This document shows, in pieces, positions 3,421 through 20,225 of a stretch of DNA of 53,547 nucleotides. The first letter of the stretch is position 1; each line of letters begins with the position of its first letter. Source of the stretch: Moraxellaceae bacterium (GTDB lineage Bacteria; Pseudomonadota; Gammaproteobacteria; Burkholderiales; Rhodocyclaceae); the NCBI GenBank assembly GCA_031119205.1, contig JAVHYF010000032.1, positions 1 through 53,547 of the forward strand. Reading direction: 5' to 3'. The notes beneath the pieces are model-generated. The model was not told the DNA's origin. It did not search any database and saw nothing but the letters and a program-made list of their open reading frames with translations. The position numbers and the translations under genes were made by a program.

Positions 3421-3448
3421 GGGCGGCCTCGTCGGGGCCGCCCTTTTT
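3421..3448 (+). terminator. Intrinsic terminator after the beta-helix gene
   Basis: GGGCGGCC (3421-3428) pairs perfectly with GGCCGCCC (3436-3443) around a seven-base loop and is followed by TTTTT. It ends the beta-helix transcript and lies just before the 3' end of the convergent ATPase gene. Confidence 0.85.
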
Positions 3449-3478
3449 CCTTCGGGGCCTCTGGCAATCCCCCGGGTA

Positions 3479-4183: not shown

Positions 4184-4604
4184 GTTCTCGCCGTTCATGA
4201 ATGGCCGCGCTTGCAGCCGTGGGGTAGGGGCGGGACTGTGCGATCAGCGCCTGAGCCTGTCTGCTGGCGCATCCCGTAGAGGTCCGCATCATGGCGTCGT
4301 CGGTAGCAGGGGCGCCCCGGCAGCATTTGCCACTGCGCGCCATGTGCCGACAGCCAGCAAGGTACCGTGGACACCCGCCTTGCCGGGCGTATACCGCCAC
4401 GCCGCCACGCGCGATATTTGCACGAATCCGTGACGCGACCGTGGTCCCGCCTTGTGGGCACGCTGCGTGACCGCTGGTGGCGGGTCGCCCGCAGTTGCAG
4501 TGTACGTCGTTGCATCCCCACCACCGGCCTGCGCCTGCACGTGTCGTCAATCGCGAGTACTGTTGTGCGTTCAGACAACCCGCACATGCGACAGGAGCCC
4601 GGAC
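4184..4604. other. Intergenic region, nothing identified
   Basis: This stretch separates the divergent ATPase and DsbA-like genes. I find no convincing gene, RNA or inverted repeat; promoters for both flanking genes presumably lie here. The base composition is as GC-rich as the surrounding genes, so promoter boxes are not obvious. Confidence 0.5.
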
Positions 4605-6522: not shown

Positions 6523-6587
6523 GGGCAAGAAGGGAAGACTGCGAATGCAGTCGTTGCGTCGCAGCGATAGGTTCGCCGCCAGGTACC

Positions 6588-6625
6588 CAAAAAAGAGTCG
6601 GCCGGCAGGGATACCTGCCGGCCGA
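6588..6625 (-). terminator. Intrinsic terminator of the Kelch/BACON gene
   Basis: An eleven-pair stem (CGGCCGGCAGG at 6599-6609 with CCTGCCGGCCG at 6614-6624) lies just past the stop. On the minus strand it is followed after a few bases by TTTTTT (6594-6589). Confidence 0.85.
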
Positions 6626-6641
6626 TGTCTGGTGCCTGGTG

Positions 6642-8954
6642 TTACTGAGTGAGACCCAGGGTCAGGTTGTAGGCGCCTGTTGAGCCGGAGTAGTAACTGG
6701 TCACCTCGATGGTATAGATGCCCGCGCTGCCAGCGGGCAGTGTCAGGACGCCACTGCCGGCAGGAATCCGCGAGTTGGTACCGCCGCCGCCGTCATCGTT
6801 TGCGGCGATGACTGTGCCTGCCGGATTCTTCAGGTAGACGTAGGTGTCGAATGCCGAAGAGCTGAGCTGGATGGACACGAGATTGCCCGGCGCGGCATTG
6901 AAGGTGTAGCGATACGTGTTGTACGACGTGCCGCGCGACCCTGCTGGACAGCCGGCCACGAGATTGCCCGCGTGGCTGCCGCTCGTGATGTGCGTGCTGC
7001 AACTTGCCGGCGGTACTCCGCCCGCAGCCTGGCTCAGGTTGGCGCTGCTCGCCACGCCCGGGCCGGACACCTGGAAGGACGCGGAGCGCGCACTGCCGGT
7101 GTTTGCCGCCACCTGGAACGATACCGAGCCGTTGCCCGTGCCGCTGGTCGCCGAGGTCGCGGTCGCCCAGCTCGGCAGGCCGCTGAGCGTCCAGGTGCAG
7201 GTCGAGGCCGCGCTGATCTGGATCGACGACGACGTGGCTGCCGCGCCGAAGCTGAAGAAGGTCGGGCTCAAGCTCAGCGCGGACGGACAGGATCCGCTTG
7301 TCGAAGCTGCCTGACTCACCTGCACGCTGTTGCTGTAACTGGCGCTTGAGACCAGCAAGGACGCGTTGCGCGAACTGCCGGTATTCGCTGCGACCTGGAA
7401 GCTCACGATGCCGTTGCCGGAGCCGCTGATTGCGGAGGTCGGGGTGATCCACGACGGCAGGCCGCTCAGGCTCCAGGCGCAGCCGGCATTCACGAACACC
7501 TGGAACGAGCCGGTCGTGGCCGCTGCGGTTAAGCTCAGGCTGGACGGAGACATCGTCGGTGCTGCGCACGAGGCCACCGGAAACTGCGTGATGGTGGCTG
7601 CGTTGTTGCCGAGAGACAACGTGGCACTGCGTGAGCCACCCGTCGAGTTTGCAGTGGCTGTGAACGTGACGGTCAGGCTGCCGGACGCCGGCATGGTCTG
7701 CGCGCCCACGGTGCTCGCGGTCAGCCAGGCGGGGACGTTGGCAATCTCGAAGCGGCAGCCCGCCGCGGCCGTCAGCGTGAAACTGGCCTGACCACCCGTG
7801 GTGGCCAGGGTCTGGGAGCTGCTTCCCGACAAGGCGATGACCTGAGGCGCGCAGGCCTTGCTCCAGATGTACGCCGCATTGCTTGCGTCGTTCTGCTCCG
7901 CCCCACCGGCCAGCAGCAGGTCGCCACCGGGCAGCAGTGATGCAGTGCTGTTACGCACGGCTGCCCGCTTCGGGCCGGTCAGGTTCCATTGTGCGGACGC
8001 CGCCTGGTAGCGGATCAGGCTTCGGGTGTAATTCCCCATCAGAATGACGTCGCCATTGTCGAGCCGCGTCGCGGAAGACACGGCGGTGGCGATGGGCATG
8101 GCAGGGCCGGCAAGGAACTGTCCGGTCGCGGGATCGTAGATTTCTGTGCTGGAAAGCGAAGAAGTGTTTCCGCCACCTGCCACCAGCACCCTGCCATCAC
8201 TCAGCAGGAAGGGTTGCACGTCCTGACGGGGCTGTCCCATCGGCCCGGTGCCAGTCCATTGGTTGGTTGCCGGATCCCACAATTCGGCGCGGTTCAGATA
8301 GCCGCCTGCACTGTCGAAAGCCAAGCCACCTACCTTCAGGACGCGGCCATCCTGTAGTACGACCAGGCCGTACCAGCCACTCACGTCGATCATGTTGCCG
8401 GTCTTCGTGAAGGTATTCGTCACCGGGTCATAGACCTCGGCAAAACGCACGCCGTTGTAGTGGTCCGCGTTCATGACGAAGACCTTGCCGCTCGACAGCA
8501 GGCGTGCGGTCGCACGGGTGCGCGCCACGTTCATGCTGGCCGCTGGCGTCCATTGGCCGGTGGCCGGGTCGAAGATCTCGGTCGTGGCAGTTCCGACCAG
8601 GCTAGGGCTGGTGACGGTCGTGCCGCCGAGCACCATCACGCGACCATCGCGTAGCGTCACGGCGGCGTGCTCTGTCCGTGCCTGCAGCATAGGCGCAACG
8701 GCAGTAAACACGCCGGTCACCGGGTCATAGCGTTCCGCACTGGCATAAGGCGCGGTGCCGGGTCTCGCATAGCCACCGGCAAGAAGGACCTTTCCGTCGG
8801 CCAGCGTACTCGCGCTGTGCATCATGCGCGGAACGGTCGTGTTGCCGGTGCTGGTCGTGGCTGGGGAGACGGTGGAAAAGAGGGAAAGAAAGAAGAGAGC
8901 GAAGACTGCCAGAATGCTGCGGTGCTGCCGGTTGGACGTGCGGAGCCTGTGCAT
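6642..8954 (-). CDS. Exported Kelch-type propeller protein with BACON and PPC domains
   Basis: A protein of 770 residues. A signal peptide occupies about residues 1-32. Residues about 40-365 hold seven or so Kelch-like repeats, each with a GKVLLAGG or GRVLVAGG strand followed by a YDPATGQW-type element, predicting a beta-propeller. Residues about 365-640 carry three Ig-like BACON-type repeats, with recurring GLPSWITPTSA and VSFQVAANTGS elements. The last 100 residues (from SCSTHITSG) match a bacterial pre-peptidase C-terminal (PPC) domain, including FDTYVYLKNP and AANDDGGGG. Nothing enzymatic is visible, so a surface-binding or carbohydrate-recognition role is inferred. It is monocistronic with a terminator at 6588; the ribosome site is weak. 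Confidence 0.85.
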   Translation of the reverse strand: MHRLRTSNRQHRSILAVFALFFLSLFSTVSPATTSTGNTTVPRMMHSASTLADGKVLLAGGYARPGTAPYASAERYDPVTGVFTAVAPMLQARTEHAAVTLRDGRVMVLGGTTVTSPSLVGTATTEIFDPATGQWTPAASMNVARTRATARLLSSGKVFVMNADHYNGVRFAEVYDPVTNTFTKTGNMIDVSGWYGLVVLQDGRVLKVGGLAFDSAGGYLNRAELWDPATNQWTGTGPMGQPRQDVQPFLLSDGRVLVAGGGNTSSLSSTEIYDPATGQFLAGPAMPIATAVSSATRLDNGDVILMGNYTRSLIRYQAASAQWNLTGPKRAAVRNSTASLLPGGDLLLAGGAEQNDASNAAYIWSKACAPQVIALSGSSSQTLATTGGQASFTLTAAAGCRFEIANVPAWLTASTVGAQTMPASGSLTVTFTATANSTGGSRSATLSLGNNAATITQFPVASCAAPTMSPSSLSLTAAATTGSFQVFVNAGCAWSLSGLPSWITPTSAISGSGNGIVSFQVAANTGSSRNASLLVSSASYSNSVQVSQAASTSGSCPSALSLSPTFFSFGAAATSSSIQISAASTCTWTLSGLPSWATATSATSGTGNGSVSFQVAANTGSARSASFQVSGPGVASSANLSQAAGGVPPASCSTHITSGSHAGNLVAGCPAGSRGTSYNTYRYTFNAAPGNLVSIQLSSSAFDTYVYLKNPAGTVIAANDDGGGGTNSRIPAGSGVLTLPAGSAGIYTIEVTSYYSGSTGAYNLTLGLTQ

Positions 8955-9136
8955 GTGTCATTCCATGTGAGTGAAGCCTGCGCCCTGGGGACCGATTCCC
9001 CTGGGTGGCCCGACTATAACGACCGAGGTGCCCACGCTCTTCGTGGCATGCCCGCAAGACCGGGCGGTTGGCGGACAGGCGGCGGGCTGGATTGCCCGGG
9101 CGTATCTGCGTTGCCGTTGCCCGGCATGGCAGCGGG

Positions 9137-11059
9137 TCACTGCAGCCGTATGGCGTTGTCTAACACCCAGCTCCTGCGCAACTCGATGACGTCGTACTCG
9201 CGTGCCAGGCCTGCGGAGAACGGTGGATAGGGCGCGGCGCTTTCCACGATCTTGCGCACGGCGGCGTCGACGGCGGGCGTGCCGCTGGAGACGACGAAGG
9301 TGATGGCTTCCACCGTGCCATCGCTGCGTAGCGCAACGGTGACCAGTGGTTGGTTGTGGGGCAGTTTCGCCAGTTCGCGCACGGTGTCGACCGGGGTGTT
9401 GAGCTGGATCTTGCGGGCCCAGGCCTCGGCGTAGAGGACCAGTTCCTGGTTGGGGTCGCTGCGACCGAAAAGGCGGGCGCGGCGGACGCTGCTGGCGCTG
9501 GGTAGCGGCGGGCGTGGTGGGGTGAGGGTGCTGGCGGCAGCTTCGCGCTGGGCGCGTTCTTCATCCAGCTGGCGGCCGATTGCGCGCAAGCGTGCTTCGC
9601 GGGCGGCTTCCTGTTCGGCACGGGCAGCATCCTGCTGGGCCCTGGCGGCCCGTGCCTGTTCCTGTCTTGCGGCCTCCTGGCGCTGGGCTTCCGCGCGGGC
9701 GGCATCGGCGCGTTCGCGTTCCTGCCGGGCGACGGATTCCTTCTCGGCGGCGATGCGTGCGGCCTCGGCGCGGGCAGCCTCCTGGCGCGCAGCTTCCGCC
9801 CGCGCTGCGTCCTGCCGGGCTGCTTCGATGCGCGCCGCCTCTTGTCTTGCGGCTTCCTCGGCGCGTTCGCGTTGAAGCTGGGCCTGGCGTGCCTGCTCCG
9901 CGCGTTGGGCTTCCAGACGCTCGCTCTCCCGACGCGCAGCCTCGCGCTGCTCTCGCTGTTCCGTTTCGCGGCGTGCAGCTTCGATACGGGCAGCCTCCAG
10001 CCTTTCGGCTTCGAGACGCGCGGCCTCCACGCGTGCAGTCTCGGCGCGTGCCGCTTCCTGCCGGTCGGCCTCGCGTTGTGCGGCGATGCGCGCTTGCTCC
10101 TGCTTCAGCGCTTCGGCACGCTCCCGTTCCGCGATGGCCGCGGCCTGCCGTGCTGCTTCGACGCGTGCGGCTTCCTGTCGCACGAGTTCCTGCTCGCGTT
10201 GTTGTCGCTGCTCCGCTTCGATGCGCGCGGCCTCGCGGCGTTCGGCGTCCTGCCGGCGGGCCTCGGCTTGCTCGCGTTCCAGTTGCACGGCGGCCTGACG
10301 CGCCGCTTCGAGGCGGGCGGCCTCCAGTGCGGCGGCTTCGCGCTGGGCGGCAGCCTGGCGTGCCTGTTCCTGCCGCATGGCTTCTCCGCGCTCGGCAGCG
10401 AGGCGGATGGCTTCCTCGTTGATGCGGTCCTGCTCGTCGGCCAGTTTCTGTGCGGACTGACTGGCGTGCAGTGGCGTCGGCCTTTCGGGCTCGGCAGCCG
10501 GTGCGCTCTGGTCCAGTGCGATTTCCGGTGCCTGCATCGGCGGTGCATCCGGCGCGACCCGGATGGTGGCGGGCGAGGGCTCCGGCTTTGTCAGCACAGG
10601 CGGGCGATTCGGGCTGGGGAGTGGTGGCGGAGGGGGCGGTGCCGGTGGCTCGGGCGCAAGGGCCTCGGCGGTGCCGGTGGCTTCGCTACCGGGTGAGGGC
10701 AAGGTGACGGTGGTGGCATTCGCTGCCGGTTGCGGGGCAGGCAGACCGGAGGGCGGCGGTGGCAGAGGTGGTGCCGCGCTGTCCGGGTTGGCATTGGCGG
10801 CGTCCGGCATGTGCTGGGCAGGCGCTGCGGCGGGGGCCGGTGGTGGTGCCGTGGCTGCTGTCGTCACCGGCGCCGGGGCCAGCACGACGCGCAGGTCGTC
10901 GGGCTGGAAGCGACGGTCGCGCAGGAAGTCGAGACCGGGCAGACCGAGCCCCTGGCCGCTGAGGCTGAGGTTCAGCAGCAGGCCATGCACCAGCAGCGAG
11001 AGCAGCAGGGCGGCGCCGAGGCGTCGGCGCTCGCGCAGCGAGGCGGGGTCGGTTCTCAA
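9137..11059 (-). CDS. TonB/TolA-like energy-transducing protein with long charged helix
   Basis: About 640 residues if translation starts at the TTG at 11059. A single transmembrane helix (AALLLSLLVHGLLLNLSL, about residues 15-32) fits a TonB/TolA anchor. A Pro/Ala-rich stretch follows to about residue 190. A continuous helix rich in Ala, Arg, Glu and Gln runs from about 195 to 510, as in TolA domain II. The last 90 residues (LVTVALRSDGTVEAITF...PYPPFSAGL) form a TonB-type C-terminal domain. The frame stays open upstream, but the preceding codons cross repeat DNA and give implausible sequence, so a short cytoplasmic N-terminus is more likely. No exbB/exbD or tol genes are adjacent. It probably bridges inner and outer membranes. 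Confidence 0.82.
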   Translation of the reverse strand: MRTDPASLRERRRLGAALLLSLLVHGLLLNLSLSGQGLGLPGLDFLRDRRFQPDDLRVVLAPAPVTTAATAPPPAPAAAPAQHMPDAANANPDSAAPPLPPPPSGLPAPQPAANATTVTLPSPGSEATGTAEALAPEPPAPPPPPPLPSPNRPPVLTKPEPSPATIRVAPDAPPMQAPEIALDQSAPAAEPERPTPLHASQSAQKLADEQDRINEEAIRLAAERGEAMRQEQARQAAAQREAAALEAARLEAARQAAVQLEREQAEARRQDAERREAARIEAEQRQQREQELVRQEAARVEAARQAAAIAERERAEALKQEQARIAAQREADRQEAARAETARVEAARLEAERLEAARIEAARRETEQREQREAARRESERLEAQRAEQARQAQLQRERAEEAARQEAARIEAARQDAARAEAARQEAARAEAARIAAEKESVARQERERADAARAEAQRQEAARQEQARAARAQQDAARAEQEAAREARLRAIGRQLDEERAQREAAASTLTPPRPPLPSASSVRRARLFGRSDPNQELVLYAEAWARKIQLNTPVDTVRELAKLPHNQPLVTVALRSDGTVEAITFVVSSGTPAVDAAVRKIVESAAPYPPFSAGLAREYDVIELRRSWVLDNAIRLQ

Positions 11060-11352
11060 ATCTGGCCCTGTTCGGGATGCGGGGGGAGCTGCAGGCGCGC
11101 CGGGGGAGGTCGTAGCCTGCTTTTTATCATCCTTCGGTGTGCTGGATGGAGGAGATGGCCATCTGGTGTGGTTCGGGCGTCGCTTGCTGGTCGCCGGGCG
11201 GTAGCTTGTCGCCCTGTTCGTGAAGGACGGAAGCCCAGCGGTCTCTTGTGTGTGGTGCCGGTCGGCCGGGCGGTTGGGTGGAAGCGGATTGCTGCCTTCG
11301 CAGGAGTGACGGGGTTCTTGCGGGGTCGGTAGCCGTGTCTGTCGCGCCAATG
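11060..11352. other. Upstream region of the TonB-like gene, with a repeat fragment
   Basis: The minus-strand frame stays open here but looks non-coding. At 11291-11312 is GCTGCCTTCGCAGGAGTGAC, a partial copy of the repeat found as an inverted pair at 48886-48994. The promoter of the TonB-like gene should lie here. Confidence 0.5.
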
Positions 11353-11377
11353 AAAAGGCCCGCGTCATGCGGGCCTT
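11353..11377 (-). terminator. Intrinsic terminator of the peroxiredoxin gene
   Basis: AAGGCCCGC (11355-11363) pairs with GCGGGCCTT (11369-11377) around a five-base loop. On the minus strand the second arm ends in TTTT, giving a short intrinsic terminator 47 bases after the stop. Confidence 0.75.
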
Positions 11378-11423
11378 CGGGGTGCGTGCGGCGTGGATGC
11401 GCCGCGCGTCGGGTTCGAGGAGA

Positions 11424-12080
11424 TCAGCCCGGCTGCTTGGTGGTGCGCAGGTAGGGCTTGATGGTCTTGAAGCCGGGGAAGGCCTTCTCGGCATCTTCGT
11501 TGCTGACGGCGGGGGTGATGATGACGTCGTCGCCGTTCTTCCAGTTCACCGGGGTGGCGACCTTGTGCTTCGCGGTGAGCTGCATGGAGTCCAGCACGCG
11601 CAGGATTTCGTCGAAGTTGCGGCCGGTGGTCATCGGGTAGGTGAGCATCAGCTTGATCTTCTTGTCCGGGCCGACGATGAACACCGAGCGCACGGTGGCG
11701 TTGGTGGCGGCGGTGCGGCCTTCGCTGGTGCCGGCTTCATCGGCGGGCAGCATGTTGTAGAGCTTGGCCACGGCCAGATCGGTGTCGCCGATCATCGGGT
11801 AATTCACTTTGGCGCCCTGGGTCTCCTCGATATCGACCGCCCACTTGGCATGGTTCTCGACCGGGTCGATGGACAGGCCGATGAGCTTGGCACCGCGCTT
11901 GGTGAACTCGGGTTCGATCTTCGCCATGTAGCCCAGCTCGGTGGTGCACACCGGGGTGAAATCCTTGGGGTGCGAGAACAGGATGGCCCAGCTGTCGCCG
12001 ATCCAGTCGTGGAACCTGATGGTTCCCTGAGTGGTGGTGGCGGTGAAATCGGGAGCGGTGTCGTTGATGCGCAGGGACAT
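11424..12080 (-). CDS. 1-Cys peroxiredoxin (Prx6 type)
   Basis: A protein of 218 residues, the typical length of the Prx6 group. The peroxidatic cysteine is Cys45 in the P-x3-T-x2-C motif (Pro38, Thr42, Cys45, within SHPKDFTPVCTTELG). No other cysteine is present, so this is a one-Cys enzyme that needs an external thiol, such as glutathione or a thioredoxin-like protein, for recycling. The C-terminal extension (VATPVNWKNGDDVIITP) is also Prx6-specific. It reduces hydrogen and lipid peroxides in the cytoplasm. The GAGAGG ribosome site is good and a terminator lies at 11353. It is divergent from the lipid operon starting at 12409, whose acyl-lipid products could be oxidised substrates; that link is speculation. 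Confidence 0.94.
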   Translation of the reverse strand: MSLRINDTAPDFTATTTQGTIRFHDWIGDSWAILFSHPKDFTPVCTTELGYMAKIEPEFTKRGAKLIGLSIDPVENHAKWAVDIEETQGAKVNYPMIGDTDLAVAKLYNMLPADEAGTSEGRTAATNATVRSVFIVGPDKKIKLMLTYPMTTGRNFDEILRVLDSMQLTAKHKVATPVNWKNGDDVIITPAVSNEDAEKAFPGFKTIKPYLRTTKQPG

Positions 12081-12318
12081 GATGACCTCTCTGTTTTGCG
12101 TGTTCGCGCGTGGCGTGGGTAAGTGGCGGTAAGGCAGGGGGATCGTCGCCGGAGCCTGGGCAGGACGGCGAAGTGGGCTTTTCCGGGCGCGTGTGAGTGC
12201 GATGGACAGCCGGAAAATACTAGCACTGCGTCGTCATGCTTTTCATGCCTTTCTGGCACAAGCAAATGCCCGTGGGGGGCGGGTCGGTGGGCCGGTCTGC
12301 GAACCTGCCGACCCGTAG

Positions 12319-12378
12319 CCCTTGGCTTCCCTTGGTCGCCCTTGGTGGCCCTTGGTGGCCCTTAGGTGCCCTTGTCCT
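12319..12378 (+). repeat. Six-unit tandem repeat of 10 bp upstream of the lipid operon
   Basis: The units are CCCTTGGCTT, CCCTTGGTCG, CCCTTGGTGG, CCCTTGGTGG, CCCTTAGGTG and CCCTTGTCCT, end to end. The array ends 30 bases before the ATG of the first operon gene, so it lies in the promoter or leader. The 10-bp period is close to one helical turn. The rest of the 328-base gap (12081-12408) has no visible gene. Confidence 0.85.
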
Positions 12379-12408
12379 GCCGAGCGCTCTCGGAGACACT
12401 CCGACGCC

Positions 12409-13011
12409 ATGAGCATCTATGCCCTGAAGCCGAAATTCCAGTCCCTGTTGCGCCCCCTCGTCCGCCAGCTGCATGCCGCTGGCGTGACGGCCAACCAGGT
12501 CACCCTTCTCGCCTGTCTCGTCTCCGTCGCACTCGGCGTCTGGCTGTGCCTGCAGCCACAGCCCGCGCTGTTCCTGTGGGTGCCGCTGTGGATGTTCCTG
12601 CGCATGGTTTTCAACGCGGTGGATGGCATGCTGGCGCGCGAGTTCGGCCAGCAGTCGGCGCTCGGCGCCTATCTGAACGAACTCACGGACGTCATCTCGG
12701 ACGCCTGCCTTTACCTGCCCTTTGCCTTCCTGCCGCACTTTGCGCCGCTGTGGGTAGGCGTATTCATTGCCCTGTCCATCGTGGTGGAAATGACCGGTGT
12801 GGTTGGCCTCATGGTCGGCGCCTCGCGCCGTTACGACGGGCCTTTCGGCAAGAGTGACCGGGCGTTCGTCATTGGCGCGCTGGCGCTGGCCGTCGGGTTC
12901 GGCCTGCCGGCGCAGGGCTGGCAGGCGCTGGCCTTCCCGCTCATGGCCGGTTTGTGCTGCGTCACGATCTGGCGTCGGGTGCAGCGCGGGCTGCAGGAAG
13001 TCCGGTCATGA
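12409..13011 (+). CDS. ynbA: CDP-alcohol phosphatidyltransferase family protein (YnbA-like)
   Basis: A protein of 200 residues with several membrane helices. It carries a CDP-alcohol phosphatidyltransferase motif starting NAVDGMLARE (Asp72, Gly73, Ala76, Arg77), then Gly86 and LNELTDVISD (Asp94, Asp98). Such enzymes swap CMP of a CDP-linked lipid for an alcohol head group at the inner membrane. The classical motif is D-x2-DG-x2-AR-x8-G-x3-D-x3-D. Here the first Asp is Asn69, and the third is either Asn90 or shifted by four residues. First gene of the six-gene operon; its closest remembered relative by context is E. coli YnbA, whose substrate is unknown. Start chosen at 12409 because upstream codons lie in the tandem repeat. 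Confidence 0.85.
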   Translation: MSIYALKPKFQSLLRPLVRQLHAAGVTANQVTLLACLVSVALGVWLCLQPQPALFLWVPLWMFLRMVFNAVDGMLAREFGQQSALGAYLNELTDVISDACLYLPFAFLPHFAPLWVGVFIALSIVVEMTGVVGLMVGASRRYDGPFGKSDRAFVIGALALAVGFGLPAQGWQALAFPLMAGLCCVTIWRRVQRGLQEVRS

Positions 13012-13057
13012 TGTCCGCGTCATGGATCAATCGGCACCGTTGTGCCAGGGAGCATGC

Positions 13058-14836
13058 ATGAGTCGTCAGGTGATTGAAGCGCAATTCTCGACGAGCGATG
13101 GCGAGCAGTTGTTCTATCGCCACTGGCCGGCTCAGGGGGACAAGCCACGCGGGGTGATCGTGCTGTTCCACCGTGGCCACGAGCATTCCGGCCGCATGGC
13201 GCATGTGGTCGACGAACTGGACCTGCCGGACTTCGCTTTCTACGCCTGGGATGCACGCGGCCACGGCCGTTCGCCGGGTGTGCGTGGTTTCAGCCCGAGC
13301 TTCGGGCGTTCGGTGCGTGACGTGGACGAGTTCGTGCGCCACGCCGCCGCACAGAGCGGCGTGGCGCTGGCGGACGTCGGCGTCGTGGCGCAAAGCGTGG
13401 GCGCCGTGCTGGTCAGCACCTGGGTGCATGACTACGCGCCGGACATCCGCTGCATGTCGCTCGCGTCGCCGGCCTTCAAGGTCAAGCTCTACGTGCCGCT
13501 GGCGGTGCCGGGGCTGGCGCTGATGCACAAGCTGCGCGGCAACTTCTTCGTCAATTCCTATGTGAAGGCGAAGTTCCTCACCCACGACCCGGCACGCATC
13601 GCGTCCTACGACAGCGACCCGCTGATCACGCGGCCGATCTCGGTCAACATCCTGCTGGCGCTCTACCAGGCGGCCGAGCGCGTGGTGTCGGACGCCGGTG
13701 CGATCCACGTGCCGACGCAGCTGCTGATCTCCGGTGCCGACTGGGTGGTCCACCACGGTCCGCAGCATGCGTTCTTTGACGGCCTCGGCAGCCGCATCAA
13801 GGAGCGCCACGTACTGGACGGTTTCTTCCACGACACGCTCGGCGAGAAGGACCGTCACCTCGCCATCGCCAGGCTGCGTGGCTTCCTGCTGGCGCGGTTC
13901 GCGGAGGCGCCGCAGCGTCCGGCCTTGCTCGATGCGCACAAGAGCGGCTACAGCTACGACGAGTACAAGCGACTCGAACAGCCGCTGTCAGTCTTCAACC
14001 CGAAACGCTGGGTCTTCGCCATCTCGCGGCTGTCGATGGCGACGCTGGGTCGCCTGTCCGAAGGCGTTCGACTGGGCCTGAGTACCGGCTTCGATTCCGG
14101 CAGCACGCTGGACTACGTGTACCGCAACGAGGCGCGCGGCGTCGGTTTCGTCGGCCGCCTGTTCGACCGCAATTACCTCGACGCCATCGGCTGGCGCGGC
14201 ATCCGCCAGCGCAAGCTGCACGTGGAGCAGTTGCTGCAGTGGGCCATCGGTCAGTTGCGCGCGGCGGGTCAGCCGGTGCACGTGCTGGACATCGCCGCCG
14301 GTCACGGGCGCTACATCCTGGAAGGCATCGCGCAGTTGCCGCAGCAGCCGGACTCGGTGCTGCTGCGCGACTACAGTCCGCTCAACGTCGAGAAGGGCAA
14401 CGCACTGATCGCCGCCAAGGGCATGCAGGGCGTGGCGCGCTTCGTCGCCGGCAATGCCTTCGAGCGCGCTTCGCTGTCCGGGCTGTCGCCGCGTCCCACG
14501 GTGGCCGTGGTGTCCGGTCTCTACGAACTGTTCCCGGACAACGCGTTGCTGCGCGATTCGCTCGCCGGCCTCGCCGATGCGGTGCCGGAAGGTGGTTACC
14601 TGGTCTACACCGGACAGCCCTGGCACCCGCAGCTGGAGTTCATCGCCCGCGTGCTGTCCAGCCACCGCGACGGCAAGCCCTGGGTGATGCGGCGTCGCGT
14701 GCAGGCGGAGATGGATCAACTGGTGGAAGCTGCCGGTTTCAGCAAGTTGCAGACGCTCAGCGACGAGTGGGGCATCTTCAGCGTGTCGGTTGCACAGCGG
14801 GTCGCACCGCAGGTCGCGCAGCGCCGTGCAGACTGA
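13058..14836 (+). CDS. ynbC: Alpha/beta hydrolase fused to SAM methyltransferase (YnbC-like)
   Basis: A protein of 592 residues, close to E. coli YnbC. Residues about 5-290 form an alpha/beta hydrolase of the lysophospholipase or monoglyceride-lipase type: FHRGHEHSGR near the oxyanion site, WDARGHGRSPG, nucleophile Ser113 in VAQSVGA, and a late His in DGFFHDTLGEKDRH. Residues about 380-580 form a class I SAM-dependent methyltransferase, with motif I VLDIAAGHGRYI near residue 408. AGGGAG precedes the ATG at 13058; an ATG 12 codons earlier lacks a site. No signal peptide. The fusion implies that acyl-chain release and methylation act on one lipid-linked substrate, which is inference. The stop overlaps the next gene. 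Confidence 0.88.
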   Translation: MSRQVIEAQFSTSDGEQLFYRHWPAQGDKPRGVIVLFHRGHEHSGRMAHVVDELDLPDFAFYAWDARGHGRSPGVRGFSPSFGRSVRDVDEFVRHAAAQSGVALADVGVVAQSVGAVLVSTWVHDYAPDIRCMSLASPAFKVKLYVPLAVPGLALMHKLRGNFFVNSYVKAKFLTHDPARIASYDSDPLITRPISVNILLALYQAAERVVSDAGAIHVPTQLLISGADWVVHHGPQHAFFDGLGSRIKERHVLDGFFHDTLGEKDRHLAIARLRGFLLARFAEAPQRPALLDAHKSGYSYDEYKRLEQPLSVFNPKRWVFAISRLSMATLGRLSEGVRLGLSTGFDSGSTLDYVYRNEARGVGFVGRLFDRNYLDAIGWRGIRQRKLHVEQLLQWAIGQLRAAGQPVHVLDIAAGHGRYILEGIAQLPQQPDSVLLRDYSPLNVEKGNALIAAKGMQGVARFVAGNAFERASLSGLSPRPTVAVVSGLYELFPDNALLRDSLAGLADAVPEGGYLVYTGQPWHPQLEFIARVLSSHRDGKPWVMRRRVQAEMDQLVEAAGFSKLQTLSDEWGIFSVSVAQRVAPQVAQRRAD

Positions 14837-16139
14837 GGCTGCCCGGCCGCAACGTCCCTGGGGCTGGGCCTGTATCTGGGGCCTGGCGCTGGGGGTGCTT
14901 TTCTTCAGCAGCTACAACACGGTCAACAGCTTCACCGCGCAGCGCAGCGACGTCGGCGTCTACGTGCTGGCGTGGGAGCGGTATATCCCCTTCCTCGCGT
15001 GGACCATCGTGCCGTACTGGTCCATCGATTTCCTCTACGGCATTGCGCTGTTCGCCTCGCGCAGCAAGGCCGAGCTGTTCCGCCTCGGCAAGCGCCTGCT
15101 CGCCGCGCAGGTCATCTGCATCAGTGGCTTCCTGCTGTGGCCCCTGCATTTCAGCTTCCAGCGGCCGGACAGCGATGGCCTGTTCGGAGCGATGTTCGAT
15201 GCGCTGGCGGGCTTCGACCTGCCCTACAACCAGGCGCCGTCGCTGCACATCTGCCTGCTGGTCGTGCTGTGGCGGCACTACAGCGATCTGGCCGGACACA
15301 GCGTCTGGCGCTGGCTGCTGCATGGCTGGTTCGCGTTGATCGCCGTGTCGGTGCTGACGACCTGGCAGCACCACAGCATCGACCTGCTGACCGGTTTCTG
15401 GGCCGGTGCGTTGTGCCTGCTGGTGGTACCGGACCAGCAAGCCAGCTGGCGCTGGCGCGGCGCGCAGCCCGGGCGTCTGCGGCTGGGTGCCTTCTACCTG
15501 CTGGGCGCTCTGCTGGCTGCCGCGACAGGGGCTGTGTTGTTCCCGGCAGTGGCGGCCTGGCTCTTCTACTGGCTGGCTGCCGCACTCGGCTTCGTCGCGG
15601 TGATCTACTTCGCGGGCGAGCCTGCGCACTTCGGCAAACAAGGCGCACGCATGCCCTGGCGCAGCTGGATGGCGCTGGGCCCCTACCTGCTGGGCGCGCG
15701 CCTCAACGCCTGGTTGTGGACGCGCAAGCTGCCGGTCGGCTCGGCGGTGGGGGATGGTGTCTTCCTCGGTCGCCAGCCGGACGCTGCGCAGCTGCAGGCG
15801 CAAGGTGTGGCCACCGTCATCGACCTGTGCGCCGAGCTGCCCTTGCCGGCAACGCCGGCCGCCTATGAATCACATCCCCAGCTCGATCTGTTGCCGCCGG
15901 ATGCTGCCGCGCTGGCGCGCGCCGCGCAGGCCATCGATGCCGCACGTCAGCACGGCCCGGTGTGGGTGTGCTGTGCGCTGGGCATGTCGCGCAGCGCCGC
16001 TGCGGTGGTGGCCTGGCTGATCCGCCATCGCCAGCACACGCTGGAGGAGGCGCTGGCCCGTGTGCGTGCCGCGCGGCCGCAGGTCGTGTTGTCTGCAGCC
16101 GTGCTGGCGACACTCGCCGGCCTCGCAACGCGGCCATGA
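14826..16139 (+). CDS. ynbD: PAP2-like membrane phosphatase fused to dual-specificity phosphatase (YnbD-like)
   Basis: A protein of 437 residues. The first 300 are hydrophobic, with PAP2-like elements: YNQAPSLH near residues 135-141 (in place of PSGH) and HHSIDLLTGF near 183-192. The C-terminal 130 residues form a soluble dual-specificity phosphatase with the signature CALGMSR (C-x5-R) near residues 381-387. Together they could remove phosphate from lipid pyrophosphates or phosphatidyl-alcohol phosphates, as PgpP/PTPMT1-type enzymes do for phosphatidylglycerol phosphate. The start is uncertain: I chose GTG 14826, overlapping the previous stop by 11 bases, which suggests translational coupling. 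Overlaps the next gene by ATGA. Same architecture as E. coli YnbD. Confidence 0.86.
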   Translation: MQTEAARPQRPWGWACIWGLALGVLFFSSYNTVNSFTAQRSDVGVYVLAWERYIPFLAWTIVPYWSIDFLYGIALFASRSKAELFRLGKRLLAAQVICISGFLLWPLHFSFQRPDSDGLFGAMFDALAGFDLPYNQAPSLHICLLVVLWRHYSDLAGHSVWRWLLHGWFALIAVSVLTTWQHHSIDLLTGFWAGALCLLVVPDQQASWRWRGAQPGRLRLGAFYLLGALLAAATGAVLFPAVAAWLFYWLAAALGFVAVIYFAGEPAHFGKQGARMPWRSWMALGPYLLGARLNAWLWTRKLPVGSAVGDGVFLGRQPDAAQLQAQGVATVIDLCAELPLPATPAAYESHPQLDLLPPDAAALARAAQAIDAARQHGPVWVCCALGMSRSAAAVVAWLIRHRQHTLEEALARVRAARPQVVLSAAVLATLAGLATRP

Positions 16140-16636
16140 CGCCCGACCAGCAACTCGCCGCGCTGACTGCCGCTTTCCTGCGCAGCGGTCGCGGCATCGC
16201 CGTCTTCGGCTGGTTGCTGTGCCTGCTGGCCGGCCTCGCTGCGCTGGAGGCTTCCACGCGGGGACACACCCTGGCCCTGGTTCTGCACGGCTGTGCATTG
16301 ACGACCGGCTTTGCGCTGGGCTGGCAGACCTTGCGCATGCGCTTCGACATCGCGGCGTTCGAATTCATCGCTAGCGATGATCGTTCACTCACCGCGAGTG
16401 ATGATCCTCCACTCCTCGCTCGCGACGAGCGTGATCCCGTCGCACGCGACGACGCGCCCGCACTGGCAAGATTCGACCTTGCGCTGAAGCGTCTGGGCCT
16501 GCGCGACGGCAGCGATTCGCGTGGCCTTGAACAACGTGCCGCCGCCACGCGCAGGATGGTGACGCGGCTGGCCTGTATCGTTCTTCTGGAATTCCTTCTC
16601 GTCATTGCCGGACTGCTTGCCCGCCATGCTGCTTGA
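16136..16636 (+). CDS. Small membrane protein of the lipid operon, unknown function
   Basis: A protein of 166 residues that I do not recognise. Helices at about residues 20-37 and 43-62 form a membrane hairpin. A charged, Asp/Arg-rich soluble region with the near repeat ASDDRSLTASDDPPLLARDE follows, and a third hydrophobic segment (LACIVLLEFLLVIAGLL) ends the protein. It starts in an ATGA overlap with the phosphatase gene, and its last codons overlap the acyltransferase gene, so it is almost certainly translated with both. I know of no counterpart in E. coli ynbABCD. A scaffold or accessory role for the lipid enzymes is a guess from position. Confidence 0.7.
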   Translation: MTPDQQLAALTAAFLRSGRGIAVFGWLLCLLAGLAALEASTRGHTLALVLHGCALTTGFALGWQTLRMRFDIAAFEFIASDDRSLTASDDPPLLARDERDPVARDDAPALARFDLALKRLGLRDGSDSRGLEQRAAATRRMVTRLACIVLLEFLLVIAGLLARHAA

Positions 16637-17240
16637 CCGACTCGCCGGACGTTTCCTCATTTTCCTGGCCCGCCTGCTGACCGGCGCCTATGCCAACTGG
16701 GTCGGCAGCCGGCCCGAGCCGCAGCAGCGGCTGTACTTCGCCAACCACTCCAGCCATCTCGACTTCCTGTTGTTGTGGGGCCTGCTGCCACCGGCGCTGC
16801 GCTACCGCACGCGACCGGTGGCCGGTGCGGATTACTGGAATGCCACACCGCTGCGGCGCTACCTGATCCATCGCGTGTTCCGCGGCGTGCTGGTGGAGCG
16901 TGGCCGCAAGGACGCGGCCGACAATCCGCTGGCGCCCCTGCAGGCGGCAATCGATGCGGGCGACTCGCTGATCTTCTTTCCCGAGGGCACGCGCTCGCAG
17001 ACCGACGAGATGCTGCCCTTCAAGAGCGGGCTCTACCACCTGGCGCAGGCCAACCCGGCGCTGGCGCTGGTGCCGGTGCGCATGGAGAACCTCAACCGCG
17101 TGATGCCCAAGGGCGAGCTGCTGCCCGTGCCGCTGGTGTGCATCCTCACTTTCGGCGCAGCTGTCGCACTGGGCGAGGGGGAATCCAAGTCCGCCTTCCT
17201 CGAACGTGCACGCCAGACCATCCTCGATTTGCGAGCCTGA
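16626..17240 (+). CDS. PlsC-type 1-acyl-glycerophosphate acyltransferase family protein
   Basis: A protein of 204 residues with the acyltransferase block I motif NHSSHLDF (H-x4-D, about residues 38-45) and block III FFPEGTRSQTDEM (about residues 116-128). Arg/Gly-rich VLVERGRKD lies between them. The length and the short hydrophobic N-terminus fit LPLAT/PlsC enzymes, which acylate lysophosphatidate or similar glycerolipids at the inner membrane using acyl-CoA or acyl-ACP. The ATG at 16626 overlaps the preceding gene by 11 bases. As part of the ynb-like operon it would feed phosphatidate to the CdsA-like enzyme encoded next; that role comes from context. Confidence 0.9.
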   Translation: MLLDRLAGRFLIFLARLLTGAYANWVGSRPEPQQRLYFANHSSHLDFLLLWGLLPPALRYRTRPVAGADYWNATPLRRYLIHRVFRGVLVERGRKDAADNPLAPLQAAIDAGDSLIFFPEGTRSQTDEMLPFKSGLYHLAQANPALALVPVRMENLNRVMPKGELLPVPLVCILTFGAAVALGEGESKSAFLERARQTILDLRA

Positions 17241-17242
17241 CC

Positions 17243-18226
17243 ATGAGCCTTGCCAGCAGCCTGCCTGTCATTTCCAGCAACGTCCCCGAAGCTGCACGCG
17301 TGCAGACGCTGACGCTCTTCATGGGCATCGGTGCGGTGCTGCTGTTCGCCAGCGTGGTGGGCTGGTTGTTGCGCTGGCGGCTGGGTGCAGGCAACGCGGT
17401 GGTCGCCAACCTCAATGCGCGCATCAACGCCTGGTGGGTGATGGTGGCGGTGATCGGGTTGGCCCTGCTCGGCGGGCGCACCGGCGTGGTCGTGCTGTTC
17501 GGCCTGGTGTCCTTCTTCGCGTTGCGCGAGTTCCTGACCCTGACGCACACCCGGCGCGGTGACCACCTCGCGCTGCTGGCCTGCTTCTTCCTGTTCCTGC
17601 CGCTGCAGTACCTGTTCATCTGGCACGACTGGTACGGCATGTTCTCGATCTTCGTGCCGGTGTATGCCTTCCTGCTGATGCCCTTCCTGTCCTGCCTCGG
17701 CAGTGACACGACGAACTTCCTGGCGCGCGCGACGCAGACTCAGTGGGGCCTGATGATCTGCGTGTATGCCATCTCGCATGTGCCGGCTCTGCTGGCCTTG
17801 CAGATCGTCGGCTTCGAGGATCGCAACCTGCTGCTGATCGTGTTCCTGATCCTCGTCGTGCAGTCCAGCGACGTGCTGCAGTACGTGTGGGGCAAGCTCT
17901 TCGGCCGCCACAAGATCGCGCCCAACGTGTCGCCGTCCAAGACGGTGGAGGGTTTCATCGGCGGCATCGCCAGCGCGACAGCACTGGGCGCCTCGCTGTG
18001 GTGGATCACGCCCTTCAGCCCGCTGGCTGCCGCCGGCATGGCCTTGCTGATCACGCTGACGGGTTTCGTCGGGGGACTCGTGATGTCCGCGATCAAGCGC
18101 GACCGTGGCGTCAAGGACTGGGGCCACATGATCGAAGGGCACGGCGGCATGCTCGACCGCCTCGACTCGGTGTGCTTCTCGGCACCGGTGTTCTTCCACG
18201 CGGTGCGTTACTTCTACGTGAGCTGA
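17243..18226 (+). CDS. ynbB: Phosphatidate cytidylyltransferase (CdsA family, YnbB-like)
   Basis: A protein of 327 residues with about eight transmembrane helices. The CdsA signature is intact near the C-terminus: SPSKTVEGFIGG (about 230-241), then KRDRGVKDWGHMIEGHGG and MLDRLDS (about 285-310), which hold the metal-binding acidic residues. The reaction is CTP + phosphatidate to CDP-diacylglycerol. Last gene of the operon, two bases after the acyltransferase stop, so its product would supply CDP-lipid to the phosphatidyltransferase encoded first. From memory, E. coli YnbB is a CdsA paralogue reported to be linked to glycolipid biosynthesis. Convergent with the AraC gene 16 bases away. This is probably a dedicated paralogue, with the housekeeping cdsA elsewhere. 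Confidence 0.92.
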   Translation: MSLASSLPVISSNVPEAARVQTLTLFMGIGAVLLFASVVGWLLRWRLGAGNAVVANLNARINAWWVMVAVIGLALLGGRTGVVVLFGLVSFFALREFLTLTHTRRGDHLALLACFFLFLPLQYLFIWHDWYGMFSIFVPVYAFLLMPFLSCLGSDTTNFLARATQTQWGLMICVYAISHVPALLALQIVGFEDRNLLLIVFLILVVQSSDVLQYVWGKLFGRHKIAPNVSPSKTVEGFIGGIASATALGASLWWITPFSPLAAAGMALLITLTGFVGGLVMSAIKRDRGVKDWGHMIEGHGGMLDRLDSVCFSAPVFFHAVRYFYVS

Positions 18227-18241: not shown

Positions 18242-19216
18242 TCAGGCCGGAAGCGCTGGTCCGCGTGAGTCGCCACTGCGCCATTTGCCCGGCGTGATGC
18301 CGAACTCTTTCTTGAAGGCACGACAGAACGCAGCCTCGGATTCATAACCGATGGCTTCCGCGATGCGGCCCAGCGGCTGACGGCCGCCGCGCAGCAGGCG
18401 GGCGGCCTTGGCCATGCGCCAGCGGATCAGGTACTGGATGGGTGGCGTTCCCACCAGTTCGTTGAAGCGCTGGGCCAGCACGCTGCGCGAGCTGTGCACC
18501 GCTTCGGCCAGCGCGTCCACCGACCAGTCGCGTGCCGGGTCCGCGTGCATCAGCGCAAGGCATTTCCCGACATGCGGATCGCGCAGGCCGGCCAGCCAGC
18601 CGCGATCGTTGTCCGGCAGGTGGTCGATGTAGCTGCGCAGGCTTTCCACGAACAGCGCCTCCGCGACACGCGTTGCAACGGCGGAAGTGCCGGGGGCCTC
18701 GACGGCGCTCTCGGCGGTGACGTAACTGATCGAGTGACGCAGCCATTCGCCTGCGGCCTGGCGCGAGAAGGACGAGACGAAGACGTTGGGCAGGCTCTTG
18801 AGGATGGGGTGGGGGATGTCATCCTCGTAGGCAAACCAGCCGCAGACCACGCGGGTGAGGTCGCCACCACCGCCGTAGCGCACGGTGCGCATGTTGGGTG
18901 ACACCACCTTGATCAGGTCATTGGTGCTGACCGGCGCATGTTGCAGGCCACTGCCGATGATGTGCGAGTGGCCGTATGGAAACACCACCGTATCGCCGGC
19001 CTGCAGCGCCAGCCTCTGGCCGTCTTCCAGTTCGACCCAGCATCGTCCTTCCAGCACGGTGTGGCACAGCGCGAAGCCGGGGGTTTCAAGCCGGAGTATC
19101 TGCACCAGCTCGCCGGCTGTTTCGACCTCCACGCACCATGGTTCTTCGAACTCGCCGTTGAAGAAAAGTGCGCCTTGCAGGCGGATGGCCTGCAGCACGT
19201 CCGAAAGTACATCCAC
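18242..19216 (-). CDS. AraC family regulator with cupin-type sensor domain
   Basis: A protein of 324 residues. The N-terminal two thirds resemble the AraC_binding (cupin_6) domain, with LALQAGDTVVFPYGHSH near residues 70-86. The C-terminal 100 residues hold two helix-turn-helix motifs: WSVDALAEAVHSSRSVLAQRF, and the signature IAEAIGYESEAAFCRAFKK with FGITPGKWR. Translation starts at a GTG (19216) after GGAGGG. It is divergent from the methyltransferase gene (19368) across 152 bases, the usual place for control of a target and of itself. Related regulators respond to small organic molecules or oxidants; the ligand here is unknown. Confidence 0.92.
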   Translation of the reverse strand: MDVLSDVLQAIRLQGALFFNGEFEEPWCVEVETAGELVQILRLETPGFALCHTVLEGRCWVELEDGQRLALQAGDTVVFPYGHSHIIGSGLQHAPVSTNDLIKVVSPNMRTVRYGGGGDLTRVVCGWFAYEDDIPHPILKSLPNVFVSSFSRQAAGEWLRHSISYVTAESAVEAPGTSAVATRVAEALFVESLRSYIDHLPDNDRGWLAGLRDPHVGKCLALMHADPARDWSVDALAEAVHSSRSVLAQRFNELVGTPPIQYLIRWRMAKAARLLRGGRQPLGRIAEAIGYESEAAFCRAFKKEFGITPGKWRSGDSRGPALPA

Positions 19217-19367
19217 CCTTTTGTCCCTCCGTTGCCGGCGTTCCGGTCAATAAGTCCGGACGACGCGACAAGAACGTGACTCCTGCCCTCGGCACCATGG
19301 CGCCGCGCTGCAGACGGCATGTCGCCGCTTGCGAGGCACCACTTCGAAAAGCCAGGAGTCACCAGAA

Positions 19368-20225
19368 ATGAGTACTGCCGTTATCGCCCAACCCACGACG
19401 AATTCCGTTCCCAACCCGAACCCCAACCAGGCACTGTGGGAGAAGGGTGACTTCACCCGTCTCGCGCAGACCATGCGGCGCAGCGGCGAAGACGTCGTTG
19501 CCTCGCTGAACGTCGAACCCCACTTCAATACGCTGGACGTCGGCTGCGGCGACGGCACCACCGCGTTGCCGCTCGCCTATCGAGCCGCCCGCGTGCGCGG
19601 CGTGGACATCGCCCGCAATCTTGTCGATGCCGGCAACCGTCGCTTCGCTGCCGCAGGGCTTGCCAATGGCAGCATCCAGCAGGGTGACGCCTGCGATCTG
19701 GCGGGCGTACCGGACGAGAGTTGCGACCTGGTGCTCAGCATGTTCGGCGCGATGTTCGCACCGCGGCCGGTGGATGTCGCCCGGTCATTGGTACGGGTGA
19801 CGAAGGCCGGTGGCCGCATCGTCATGGGCAACTGGATTCCGGGTGACCCGACGCTGGTCGCGCAGATCCTGCGCATCAGCGCCCAGTATGCGCCGCCGCC
19901 GGCCGGCTTCATCAGCCCCATCCTGTGGGGTGTGCCGGACGAGGTGGTGGCCCGTTTCGGCGAGGCCGGCATCCCTGCCGACCGCGTCGAAACCCGTCGC
20001 GATACTTACCGTTTCGAGTTCGCCGGCTCGCCGGCAGGCTTCCTCGCCGTGTTCCGCGACTACTACGGACCGACCATGAACGCCTACGCCGCTGCGCAGG
20101 CCGCCGGCAAGGTGGATGACCTGCACCGCGAACTGACGGCACTGTTCGCCGCGCAGAACCGCAGCACCGACCCGGCGCTGTCGGTGTTCGATGCCACCTT
20201 CCTGCGGGTTACCGTGAGGGTGTGA
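19368..20225 (+). CDS. Class I SAM-dependent methyltransferase
   Basis: A protein of 285 residues. Motif I is LDVGCGDGTTALPLA near residues 51-65, followed by VRGVDIARNLVD (motif II, with acidic Asp) and DESCDLVLSMFGAMFAPRP (motif IV). This is the UbiE/Methyltransf_11 type, acting on small molecules in the cytoplasm. AGGAG stands ten bases before the ATG. The divergent AraC gene upstream is its likely regulator. Its last 17 bases overlap the 3' end of the convergent gene at 20209. The substrate cannot be predicted; a role in modifying a toxic compound is suggested only by the regulator pairing. Confidence 0.88.
   Translation: MSTAVIAQPTTNSVPNPNPNQALWEKGDFTRLAQTMRRSGEDVVASLNVEPHFNTLDVGCGDGTTALPLAYRAARVRGVDIARNLVDAGNRRFAAAGLANGSIQQGDACDLAGVPDESCDLVLSMFGAMFAPRPVDVARSLVRVTKAGGRIVMGNWIPGDPTLVAQILRISAQYAPPPAGFISPILWGVPDEVVARFGEAGIPADRVETRRDTYRFEFAGSPAGFLAVFRDYYGPTMNAYAAAQAAGKVDDLHRELTALFAAQNRSTDPALSVFDATFLRVTVRV

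What the first reader, a model, noticed from the sequence alone, without database searches (positions are those of the whole stretch)
12409..18226. Expanded ynbABCD-like operon: a possible complete pathway for an unknown membrane lipid
Seen: six plus-strand genes, the last five joined by overlaps of 4-11 bases or a gap of 2 bases. They encode a CDP-alcohol phosphatidyltransferase, a hydrolase-methyltransferase fusion, a PAP2/dual-specificity phosphatase fusion, a small membrane protein, a PlsC acyltransferase and a CdsA-type enzyme. Known: E. coli ynbABCD has the first three and the CdsA type, and its function is unsettled. Inference: acylation (PlsC), CDP-lipid formation (CdsA), head-group transfer (YnbA), dephosphorylation (YnbD) and deacylation/methylation (YnbC) would make or remodel one lipid, much as phosphatidylinositol-phosphate or PGP is made and dephosphorylated. 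The acyltransferase makes the route nearly self-contained.
Basis: partly seen in the sequence, partly recalled or inferred. Interest (0 to 1): 0.82.

Follow-up and report, generated by a model that had tools for sequence, protein, structure and literature searches.

The report
Membrane-lipid operon of the Arc1 type
Six neighbouring genes form a conserved bacterial operon that matches one linked in Pseudomonas aeruginosa to surviving membrane-attacking toxins of rival bacteria, and its key lipid-joining enzyme carries two unusual active-site changes that make its unknown product worth chasing.

Summary
In detail: six plus-strand genes at 12409-18226, with the junctions described. "Expanded ynbABCD" points the wrong way: the six-gene form is the common one (21 of 26 other carrier genomes in an even phylum draw), and E. 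coli ynbABCD lacks two of the genes. The set fits arc1A-F of P. aeruginosa (PA2541-36), published as a phospholipid-type cluster; loss of arc1A sensitises cells to type VI lipase effectors. I file it as a new member of that known kind. The fit rests on gene number, three printed gene annotations and recall; PAO1 sequences could not be compared.

What the tools add: (1) the CDP-alcohol phosphatidyltransferase has Asn at two of the four metal-binding Asp positions (N-D-N-D) in 106 of 107 distinct relatives, E. coli YnbA included (the exception is a broken frame that keeps both Asn); 31 of 31 other family members read are D-D-D-D. (2) It lies nearest inositol-phosphate-type synthases and keeps both acceptor-phosphate arginines, so the acceptor is probably an alcohol phosphate. 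(3) Single loci from two other phyla share CdsA, this transferase and the methyltransferase, so a methylated phospholipid is a reasonable guess. (4) The window's genome also has an Arc3A-family protein and a type VI gene, but no CsrA match.

The parts
12318..12374 (+). Tandem array of a 10-bp unit, GCCCTTGGTG, about 5.7 copies, directly upstream of gene A; possible regulator site or replication slippage
   Evidence: 4 matches in the window against 0.08 expected; in the whole genome (up to 2 mismatches) only this array and one isolated 2-mismatch site
12390..12404 (+). 6-bp hairpin enclosing the GGAG nearest to the start of gene A; weak candidate for start-site masking
   Evidence: present in the centroid structure, but the 61-nt segment folds no better than shuffles (z 0.15)
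12409..13011 (+). Gene A (YnbA type): CDP-alcohol phosphatidyltransferase, 200 aa, motif N69-x2-D72-G-x2-A-R77-x8-G86-x3-N90-x3-D94
13058..14836 (+). Gene B (YnbC type): monoglyceride-lipase-like hydrolase (S113, D228, H258) fused to a SAM methyltransferase (PF12147)
14826..16139 (+). Gene C (YnbD type): membrane PAP2-like domain (PSLH; H141, H182, D186) plus dual-specificity phosphatase domain (C383, R389)
16136..16636 (+). Gene D: fast-evolving small membrane protein, 166 aa, no named family
16626..17240 (+). Gene E: PlsC-type lysophospholipid acyltransferase (N40H41-x4-D46; F118PEGTR123)
17243..18226 (+). Gene F (YnbB type): CdsA-type CDP-diacylglycerol synthase paralogue

Best explanation
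This is an Arc1-type operon: a dedicated second phospholipid pathway, separate from the cell's housekeeping one, that helps the envelope tolerate lipase attack. Proposed route: E acylates lysophosphatidate (and perhaps other lysolipids); F turns phosphatidate into CDP-diacylglycerol; A transfers the phosphatidyl group to an alcohol phosphate, giving a phosphatidylinositol-phosphate-like lipid; C removes the head-group phosphate (dual-specificity domain) and may move or trim the head group (PAP2 domain); B methylates the lipid and its lipase half removes acyl chains from damaged lipid; D is a membrane partner. Shown here: gene content, conserved clustering, fold classes, conserved catalytic residues. 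Shown in print by others for P. aeruginosa arc1A: protection from lipase effectors. Inferred: that this operon is the arc1 counterpart, every reaction and its order, the alcohol-phosphate acceptor, the methylation, and the same role in this organism.
For: PA2541-36 = arc1A-F: six genes, five lipid-related, four resembling phosphatidylglycerol-synthesis enzymes (PMC8926400). PA2536 phosphatidate cytidylyltransferase, PA2537 acyltransferase and PA2540 putative phospholipase sit where F, E and B sit here. In P. aeruginosa also lacking tssM1, loss of arc1A raises sensitivity to V. cholerae (less so without active TseL) and to A. baylyi carrying only lipase Tle1 (PMC12663445). Six genes together in 21 of 26 other carrier genomes; A, B, C, E and F clustered in 65 of 66 named loci with enough flank. 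A: best NCBIfam model is archaetidylinositol-phosphate synthase (70.9 bits) against 24.7 for pgsA; R151 and R190 align with MtPIPS R155 and R195, held to bind the acceptor's phosphate, and are kept in 106 of 107 distinct sequences. B hydrolase: human and M. tuberculosis monoglyceride lipases, target TM 0.81-0.89. A second CdsA and two ordinary CDP-alcohol enzymes lie elsewhere in the genome. E. coli YnbB overproduction raised MPIase like CdsA, but YnbB could not replace cdsA (data not shown in PMC6362211): a specialised, not bulk, role. The genome has an Arc3A-family protein and a T6SS gene.
Against: No lipid product has been seen here or in the papers found. Printed annotations were seen for three of the six PAO1 genes only; that PA2541 is a CDP-alcohol enzyme is recalled, neither arc1 paper uses those words, and primer fragments for PA2541 matched no fetched locus better than control. 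The Gac/Rsm control of arc1 is not visible here: no CsrA match in the genome, no A-N-GGA in the leader. Two of A's four metal-binding Asp are Asn, so its chemistry could differ. No PF07994 inositol-phosphate synthase in the genome. In PMC8926400 no single tested B. thailandensis effector explained the arc1 defect, and arc1 loss also modestly helped the attacker survive. In PMC12663445 arc1A looked auxiliary to arc3A. Kosakonia has a B-like protein without A, E or F beside it.
Confidence: 0.58

Rival explanations
1. Damage repair only: B clears lysolipids, E re-acylates them and F/A/C rebuild ordinary phosphatidylglycerol. No new lipid is made; the operon is an inducible back-up of the standard route.
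For: Four arc1 products resemble phosphatidylglycerol-synthesis enzymes (PMC8926400); lipase-effector phenotype; B is lipase-like and E is PlsC-like.
Against: A scores far lower with pgsA than with inositol-phosphate-type synthases (24.7 against 70.9 bits) and lacks two signature Asp; a PF12147 methyltransferase accompanies A and F in one locus each of two other phyla; YnbB could not replace cdsA.
Confidence: 0.22
2. A sugar-phosphate acceptor: A (or F itself) joins CDP-diacylglycerol to a sugar phosphate, making a glycolipid or a diacylglycerol pyrophosphate-sugar related to MPIase.
For: YnbB overproduction raised MPIase in E. coli (PMC6362211); A keeps acceptor-phosphate arginines.
Against: Deleting ynbB did not significantly change MPIase; no glycosyltransferase was recognised by eye among the 22 largest clusters of flanking frames (a weak test: many are anti-sense frames).
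Confidence: 0.1
3. Gene A has lost transferase activity through the two Asp-to-Asn changes and is a CDP-diacylglycerol-binding or regulatory subunit; the working parts are the others.
For: D1-D3 bind metal in solved relatives (PMC4634129; PMC6506517).
Against: D2, D4 (the likely base), both acceptor-phosphate Arg and Lys148 are kept in 106 of 107 distinct sequences, the exception being a broken frame that keeps D2, unlike a decaying enzyme; arc1A is the arc1 gene whose deletion gave the phenotypes.
Confidence: 0.08

Closest known systems
Arc1, antagonism resistance cluster 1 (arc1A-F = PA2541-PA2536, Pseudomonas aeruginosa; PMC8926400, PMC12663445)
   Same: Six genes, five lipid-related; cytidylyltransferase last, acyltransferase next to last, putative phospholipase second. 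PA2541 as CDP-alcohol enzyme is recalled.
   Different: No CsrA match in this genome and no A-N-GGA in the leader. Protective role here untested. No sequence comparison with PAO1.
Escherichia coli ynbABCD
   Same: Homologues of A, F, B and C at 45, 39, 58 and 38% identity in one cluster.
   Different: No D and no E; order A-F-B-C, as in the A-F-E-B-C loci (4 of 66) minus E.
Prokaryotic phosphatidylinositol-phosphate and archaetidylinositol-phosphate synthases (NF045883, NF040950; structures 6h53, 5d91)
   Same: Closest by profile; both acceptor-phosphate arginines kept.
   Different: Far below the curated cut-offs (50.2 of 170; 70.9 of 180 bits); D1 and D3 are Asn; no PF07994 inositol-phosphate synthase in the genome.
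Plasmid cluster of Pseudanabaena sp. ABRG5-3 (NZ_AP017564.1, L182)
   Same: A-F-E plus a stand-alone PF12147 methyltransferase, with the same N-D-N-D motif.
   Different: No hydrolase, PAP2/phosphatase or D gene annotated or found in the 10.8-kb stretch.

Membership tests
Arc1 gene cluster | Six genes of the stated kinds, in the order of PA2541 to PA2536 | tested here: inconclusive
   Gene number, 'five of six lipid-related' and printed annotations of PA2536, PA2537 and PA2540 fit in order; annotations of PA2538, PA2539 and PA2541 not seen in a call
Arc1 gene cluster | Orthology by sequence to the PAO1 proteins | tested here: inconclusive
   No named P. aeruginosa sequence fetched; a 20-nt primer part matched 0 of 25 genomes of one genus; primer parts fit six fetched loci no better than control, though four of the six A proteins begin Met-Ile-Ser as the printed primer does
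Arc1 gene cluster | Protects against type VI attack / lipase effectors | not testable with these tools
   Shown in print for P. aeruginosa only
Arc1 gene cluster | Gac/Rsm control (described for P. aeruginosa; PMC8926400 says arc clusters are spread wider than Gac/Rsm, so not taken as defining) | tested here: not met
   No CsrA family match in a genome about 96% complete; no A-N-GGA in the leader
CDP-alcohol phosphatidyltransferases (gene A) | PF01066 match above the curated cut-off | tested here: met
   42.1 bits, cut-off 22
CDP-alcohol phosphatidyltransferases (gene A) | Signature D1xxD2GxxAR...GxxxD3xxxD4 with four Asp | tested here: not met
   D1 and D3 are Asn in 107 of 107 distinct sequences from 109 sources; D4 is Asp in 106 of 107. 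31 of 31 other members read are Asp at D1-D4 (for L134 the second of two pattern hits is the real one). Filed as a divergent branch of the fold family, not a canonical member
Phosphatidylinositol-phosphate / archaetidylinositol-phosphate synthase (gene A) | NCBIfam equivalog cut-off | tested here: not met
   50.2 of 170 and 70.9 of 180 bits
Phosphatidylglycerophosphate synthase PgsA (gene A) | TIGR00560 cut-off | tested here: not met
   24.7 of 109.1 bits
CdsA-type enzymes (gene F) | PF01148 above cut-off with the conserved K-D...H-G-G...D-R segment (motif recalled) | tested here: met
   237.6 bits, cut-off 24; K291, D292, H300, G301, G302, D305 and R306 at 97% or more of 75 rows
PlsC-type acyltransferases (gene E) | NHx4D and FPEGTR motifs (recalled) | tested here: met
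   N40, H41, D46 and F118-R123 at 97% or more of 74 rows

The most novel reading that the evidence does not exclude
The Arc1/Ynb transferase is a new mechanistic class of CDP-alcohol phosphatidyltransferase, with Asn at two of four metal-binding positions and so probably a reduced or different metal site. With its own CdsA and a dedicated SAM methyltransferase it makes an undescribed methylated phospholipid that resists or buffers phospholipase attack. This three-enzyme core is found in Pseudomonadota and, so far in one locus each, in Cyanobacteriota and Fusobacteriota.
Probability: 0.3. Interest if true: 0.82.

Novelty: new member of a known kind. Interest (0 to 1): 0.5.

Why it matters
Arc1 and ynbABCD have been described separately; in the searches I saw no paper that connects them (most hits seen only as listings; PMC8926400 does not mention ynb). 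Joining them puts the question into E. coli K-12, where for instance a ynbB deletion is already in use. The N-D-N-D signature gives a sharp biochemical test: a transferase with two of its four metal-binding aspartates replaced should either need another metal arrangement or do other chemistry. If a new lipid is found, it could explain how cells resist lipase effectors by a route distinct from Aas/LplT and Arc3.

Tried and rejected
'Expanded ynb operon': rejected, the six-gene form is the common one. Housekeeping phosphatidylglycerol synthesis: not favoured, ordinary CDP-alcohol enzymes and a second CdsA lie elsewhere. Inositol lipid by de novo inositol-phosphate synthesis: no PF07994 match. 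Gac/Rsm control here: rejected. Hairpin at the start of A: no better than shuffles. Steady extra neighbours as substrate clues: none recognised by eye in the 22 largest flank clusters, many of them anti-sense frames, others housekeeping genes such as ruvB and tyrS (names recalled from sequence). Foldseek on C: the 50 rows shown, of 517 matches, are phosphatases or complexes and fusions holding one, so the PAP2 fold rests on Pfam matches of relatives and motifs. Foldseek on B: the 50 rows shown are lipases, esterases, hydrolases and a thioesterase, so the methyltransferase half has no solved relative named here; a sequence search of that half gave one chance-level hit. T6SS link: 19 of 27 carriers against 69 of 371 others have TssB/VipA (odds ratio 10.4, p 3e-8), but genomes are related and size was not controlled, so it is not used as proof. 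My likening of the PAP2 motifs to Aur1-type transferases is recall.
Full report
What is there. Six plus-strand genes fill 12409-18226. A is a CDP-alcohol phosphatidyltransferase, B an alpha/beta hydrolase fused to a PF12147 methyltransferase, C a PAP2-like plus dual-specificity phosphatase protein, D a small membrane protein without a named family, E a PlsC-type acyltransferase and F a CdsA-type enzyme. A peroxiredoxin gene lies upstream on the other strand, and an AraC-type regulator gene follows, also on the other strand.

How common the arrangement is. A search of 398 genomes drawn evenly from the phylum found PF12147 in 27, the window's own genome included, in 13 of 213 genera. I fetched the region in all 26 others: 21 of 26 have A-B-C-D-E-F (in one of them, L163, about 2.2 kb lie between B and C); 2 have A turned round with B-C-D and no E or F in the stretch; 1 has F-E turned round ahead of A-B-C-D; 1 has A-B only; 1 has A-B-E-F. 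A separate set of the 80 closest named loci (best 80 of 420 relatives) is biased towards near relatives; one of the 26 (L156) is nearly identical to one of them (L068). Of the 80, 66 had enough flank and 14 were left out. Order by script: 52 A-B-C-E-F, 2 A-B-C-D-E-F, 3 the same with A turned round, 4 A-F-E-B-C, 1 E-F-A-B-C, 1 A-B-C-F-E, 1 with a split F (L009), 1 A-B-C-E (L062, whose F is listed but lay beyond the script's distance limit) and 1 (L053) without a recognised A and with E under the score limit. So 56 of 66 have the window's order and 65 of 66 have all of A, B, C, E and F. D was too divergent for that single-sequence search. A D profile made from the window and 64 of these loci found D in 24 of the 26 regions, at E <= 1.7e-13, or 23 of 25 without L156. 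E. coli K-12 ynbABCD lacks D and E.

It fits a published system. PMC8926400 (abstract, find passages and sections 5 and 6 read) names PA2541-36 arc1A-F in P. aeruginosa: six genes, five lipid-related and four resembling phosphatidylglycerol-synthesis enzymes, under Gac/Rsm control, needed for survival against the type VI secretion system of B. thailandensis and not for heat, peroxide, salt or detergent stress. No single tested effector explained the arc1 defect, and arc1 loss also modestly raised the attacker's survival. PMC12663445 (find passages read) finds, in strains also lacking tssM1, that loss of arc1A raises sensitivity to V. cholerae (less without active TseL) and to A. baylyi with only the lipase Tle1, with arc1A auxiliary to arc3A against V. 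cholerae. Printed annotations of PA2536, PA2537 and PA2540 (passages) fit F, E and B. Annotations of PA2538, PA2539 and PA2541 were not seen; that PA2541 is a CDP-alcohol enzyme is recalled, and the two arc1 papers do not use the words. Primer parts printed for PA2541 gave no match. The label Arc1 is therefore a well-supported fit, not a tested orthology.

Gene A is unusual. The CDP-alcohol signature D1xxD2GxxAR...GxxxD3xxxD4 is described as eight absolutely conserved residues, with D1-D3 binding metal and D4 the likely base (PMC4634129, passages); in M. tuberculosis PgsA1 the four Asp hold a two-metal site (PMC6506517, passages). In A the residues are N69, D72, N90 and D94. The alignment has 133 rows: 24 re-read genomes already present, leaving 109 sources, among which 107 distinct sequences remain over window residues 10-190; 106 read N-D-N-D with K148, R151 and R190, and 1 (L069, a broken frame) reads N-D-N-T with the rest missing. 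No A was picked for three named loci (L010, L027, L053). As a contrast, all 31 other PF01066 proteins read (two in the own genome and 29 strong hits of a 100-genome draw) are D-D-D-D; that sample is taken from the highest scorers, mostly PgsA-like by eye, and so is not a survey of the whole family. The motif also holds in one cyanobacterial (Pseudanabaena) and one fusobacterial locus; in Fusobacterium and Moraxella the signature Arg is replaced as well. By profile A lies nearest archaetidylinositol-phosphate synthase and phosphatidylinositol-phosphate synthase, far under their cut-offs; the same order holds for E. coli, Fusobacterium and Pseudanabaena A. R151 and R190 align with MtPIPS R155 and R195, whose mutation cripples use of inositol phosphate. 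This suggests an alcohol-phosphate acceptor and fits the presence of a phosphatase domain in C. The genome has no PF07994 match.

The other enzymes. In B the Ser-Asp-His set S113, D228, H258 is kept (roles assigned by me from the fold class), and the AlphaFold model (mean pLDDT 88) matches human and mycobacterial monoglyceride lipases. C models well (pLDDT 92); its phosphatase half matches dual-specificity phosphatases and keeps C383 and R389; its membrane half keeps PSLH and the H182/D186 pair. E and F keep their motifs. YnbB, the F homologue, raises MPIase when overproduced; its deletion did not significantly change MPIase and it could not replace cdsA (PMC6362211, passages).

The core. Pseudanabaena has A-F-E plus a stand-alone methyltransferase and no hydrolase or phosphatase found. 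Fusobacterium has B-A-F. In Moraxella osloensis the A domain and the first part of the hydrolase share one frame, the remainder of B lying in the next, with an F-like gene nearby on the other strand. What these share is A, F and the methyltransferase half of B. These are 3 of the 5 records that I opened out of 35 plasmid hits; of the others, Burkholderia ambifaria has all six genes with F-E turned round, and Kosakonia has a B-like protein beside fatty-acid genes without A, E or F, so the pairing is not universal.

Regulation and setting. PA2541 is listed as having one known RsmA site around its ribosome-binding site (PMC4066749, passage). I placed a start in 83 of 107 leaders of gene A: 66 have no A-N-GGA, 13 one, 4 two. 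Eight leaders of family f15 carry 11 such motifs against about 1.2 in mononucleotide shuffles, but they are related to one another; the window's leader has none and its genome has no CsrA match. A 10-bp repeat array sits upstream instead. The genome also holds a type VI sheath gene and an Arc3A-family protein (PF10101, the family PMC8926400 used for Arc3A). Carriers of PF12147 more often have the sheath gene (19 of 27 against 69 of 371); shared ancestry is not corrected for.

Other phenotypes in print. An E. coli ynbC disruptant accumulates polyphosphate, possibly through cell stress or polar effects (PMC2435150, abstract and passages). A PA2537 mutant is listed with reduced survival in mouse airways (PMC2246019, passages).

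Verdict. A real, conserved operon and, as best one can tell, a new member of a known kind. The open question, which lipid it makes, is not answered here, but the N-D-N-D signature, the acceptor-phosphate arginines and the methyltransferase core narrow it and make it testable in E. coli K-12.

Noticed in passing
12318-12374: Array of about 5.7 copies of GCCCTTGGTG just before gene A; no second array in the held genome at up to 2 mismatches.
   Followed up: partly
18242-20225: AraC-type regulator with cupin domain (minus strand) and, divergent from it, a methyltransferase gene of the Methyltransf_11 type; no sign that they belong to the operon.
   Followed up: no
9137-11494 (minus strand): 785-residue frame with a long Ala/Glu/Arg-rich repeat region; looks like a TonB/TolA-type energy-transducing protein by eye, not searched.
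   Followed up: no
L182 (Pseudanabaena plasmid), 2688-5843: Minimal four-gene version of the operon next to nitrogen-fixation genes.
   Followed up: partly
L179 (Moraxella osloensis plasmid), 5281-13224: The transferase and the first part of the hydrolase share one frame; a patatin-like phospholipase and an SDR gene follow; two C-like pieces lie beside a transposase gene.
   Followed up: partly
L152, L153, L167, L168 leaders of gene A: Two adjacent A-N-GGA motifs (CACGGACAAGGA) before the start codon, fitting direct RsmA control in those genomes.
   Followed up: partly
own genome G000:C2:66663-68966: Arc3A-family (PF10101) protein, so Arc1-type and Arc3-type genes are both present in a genome without a CsrA match.
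   Followed up: no
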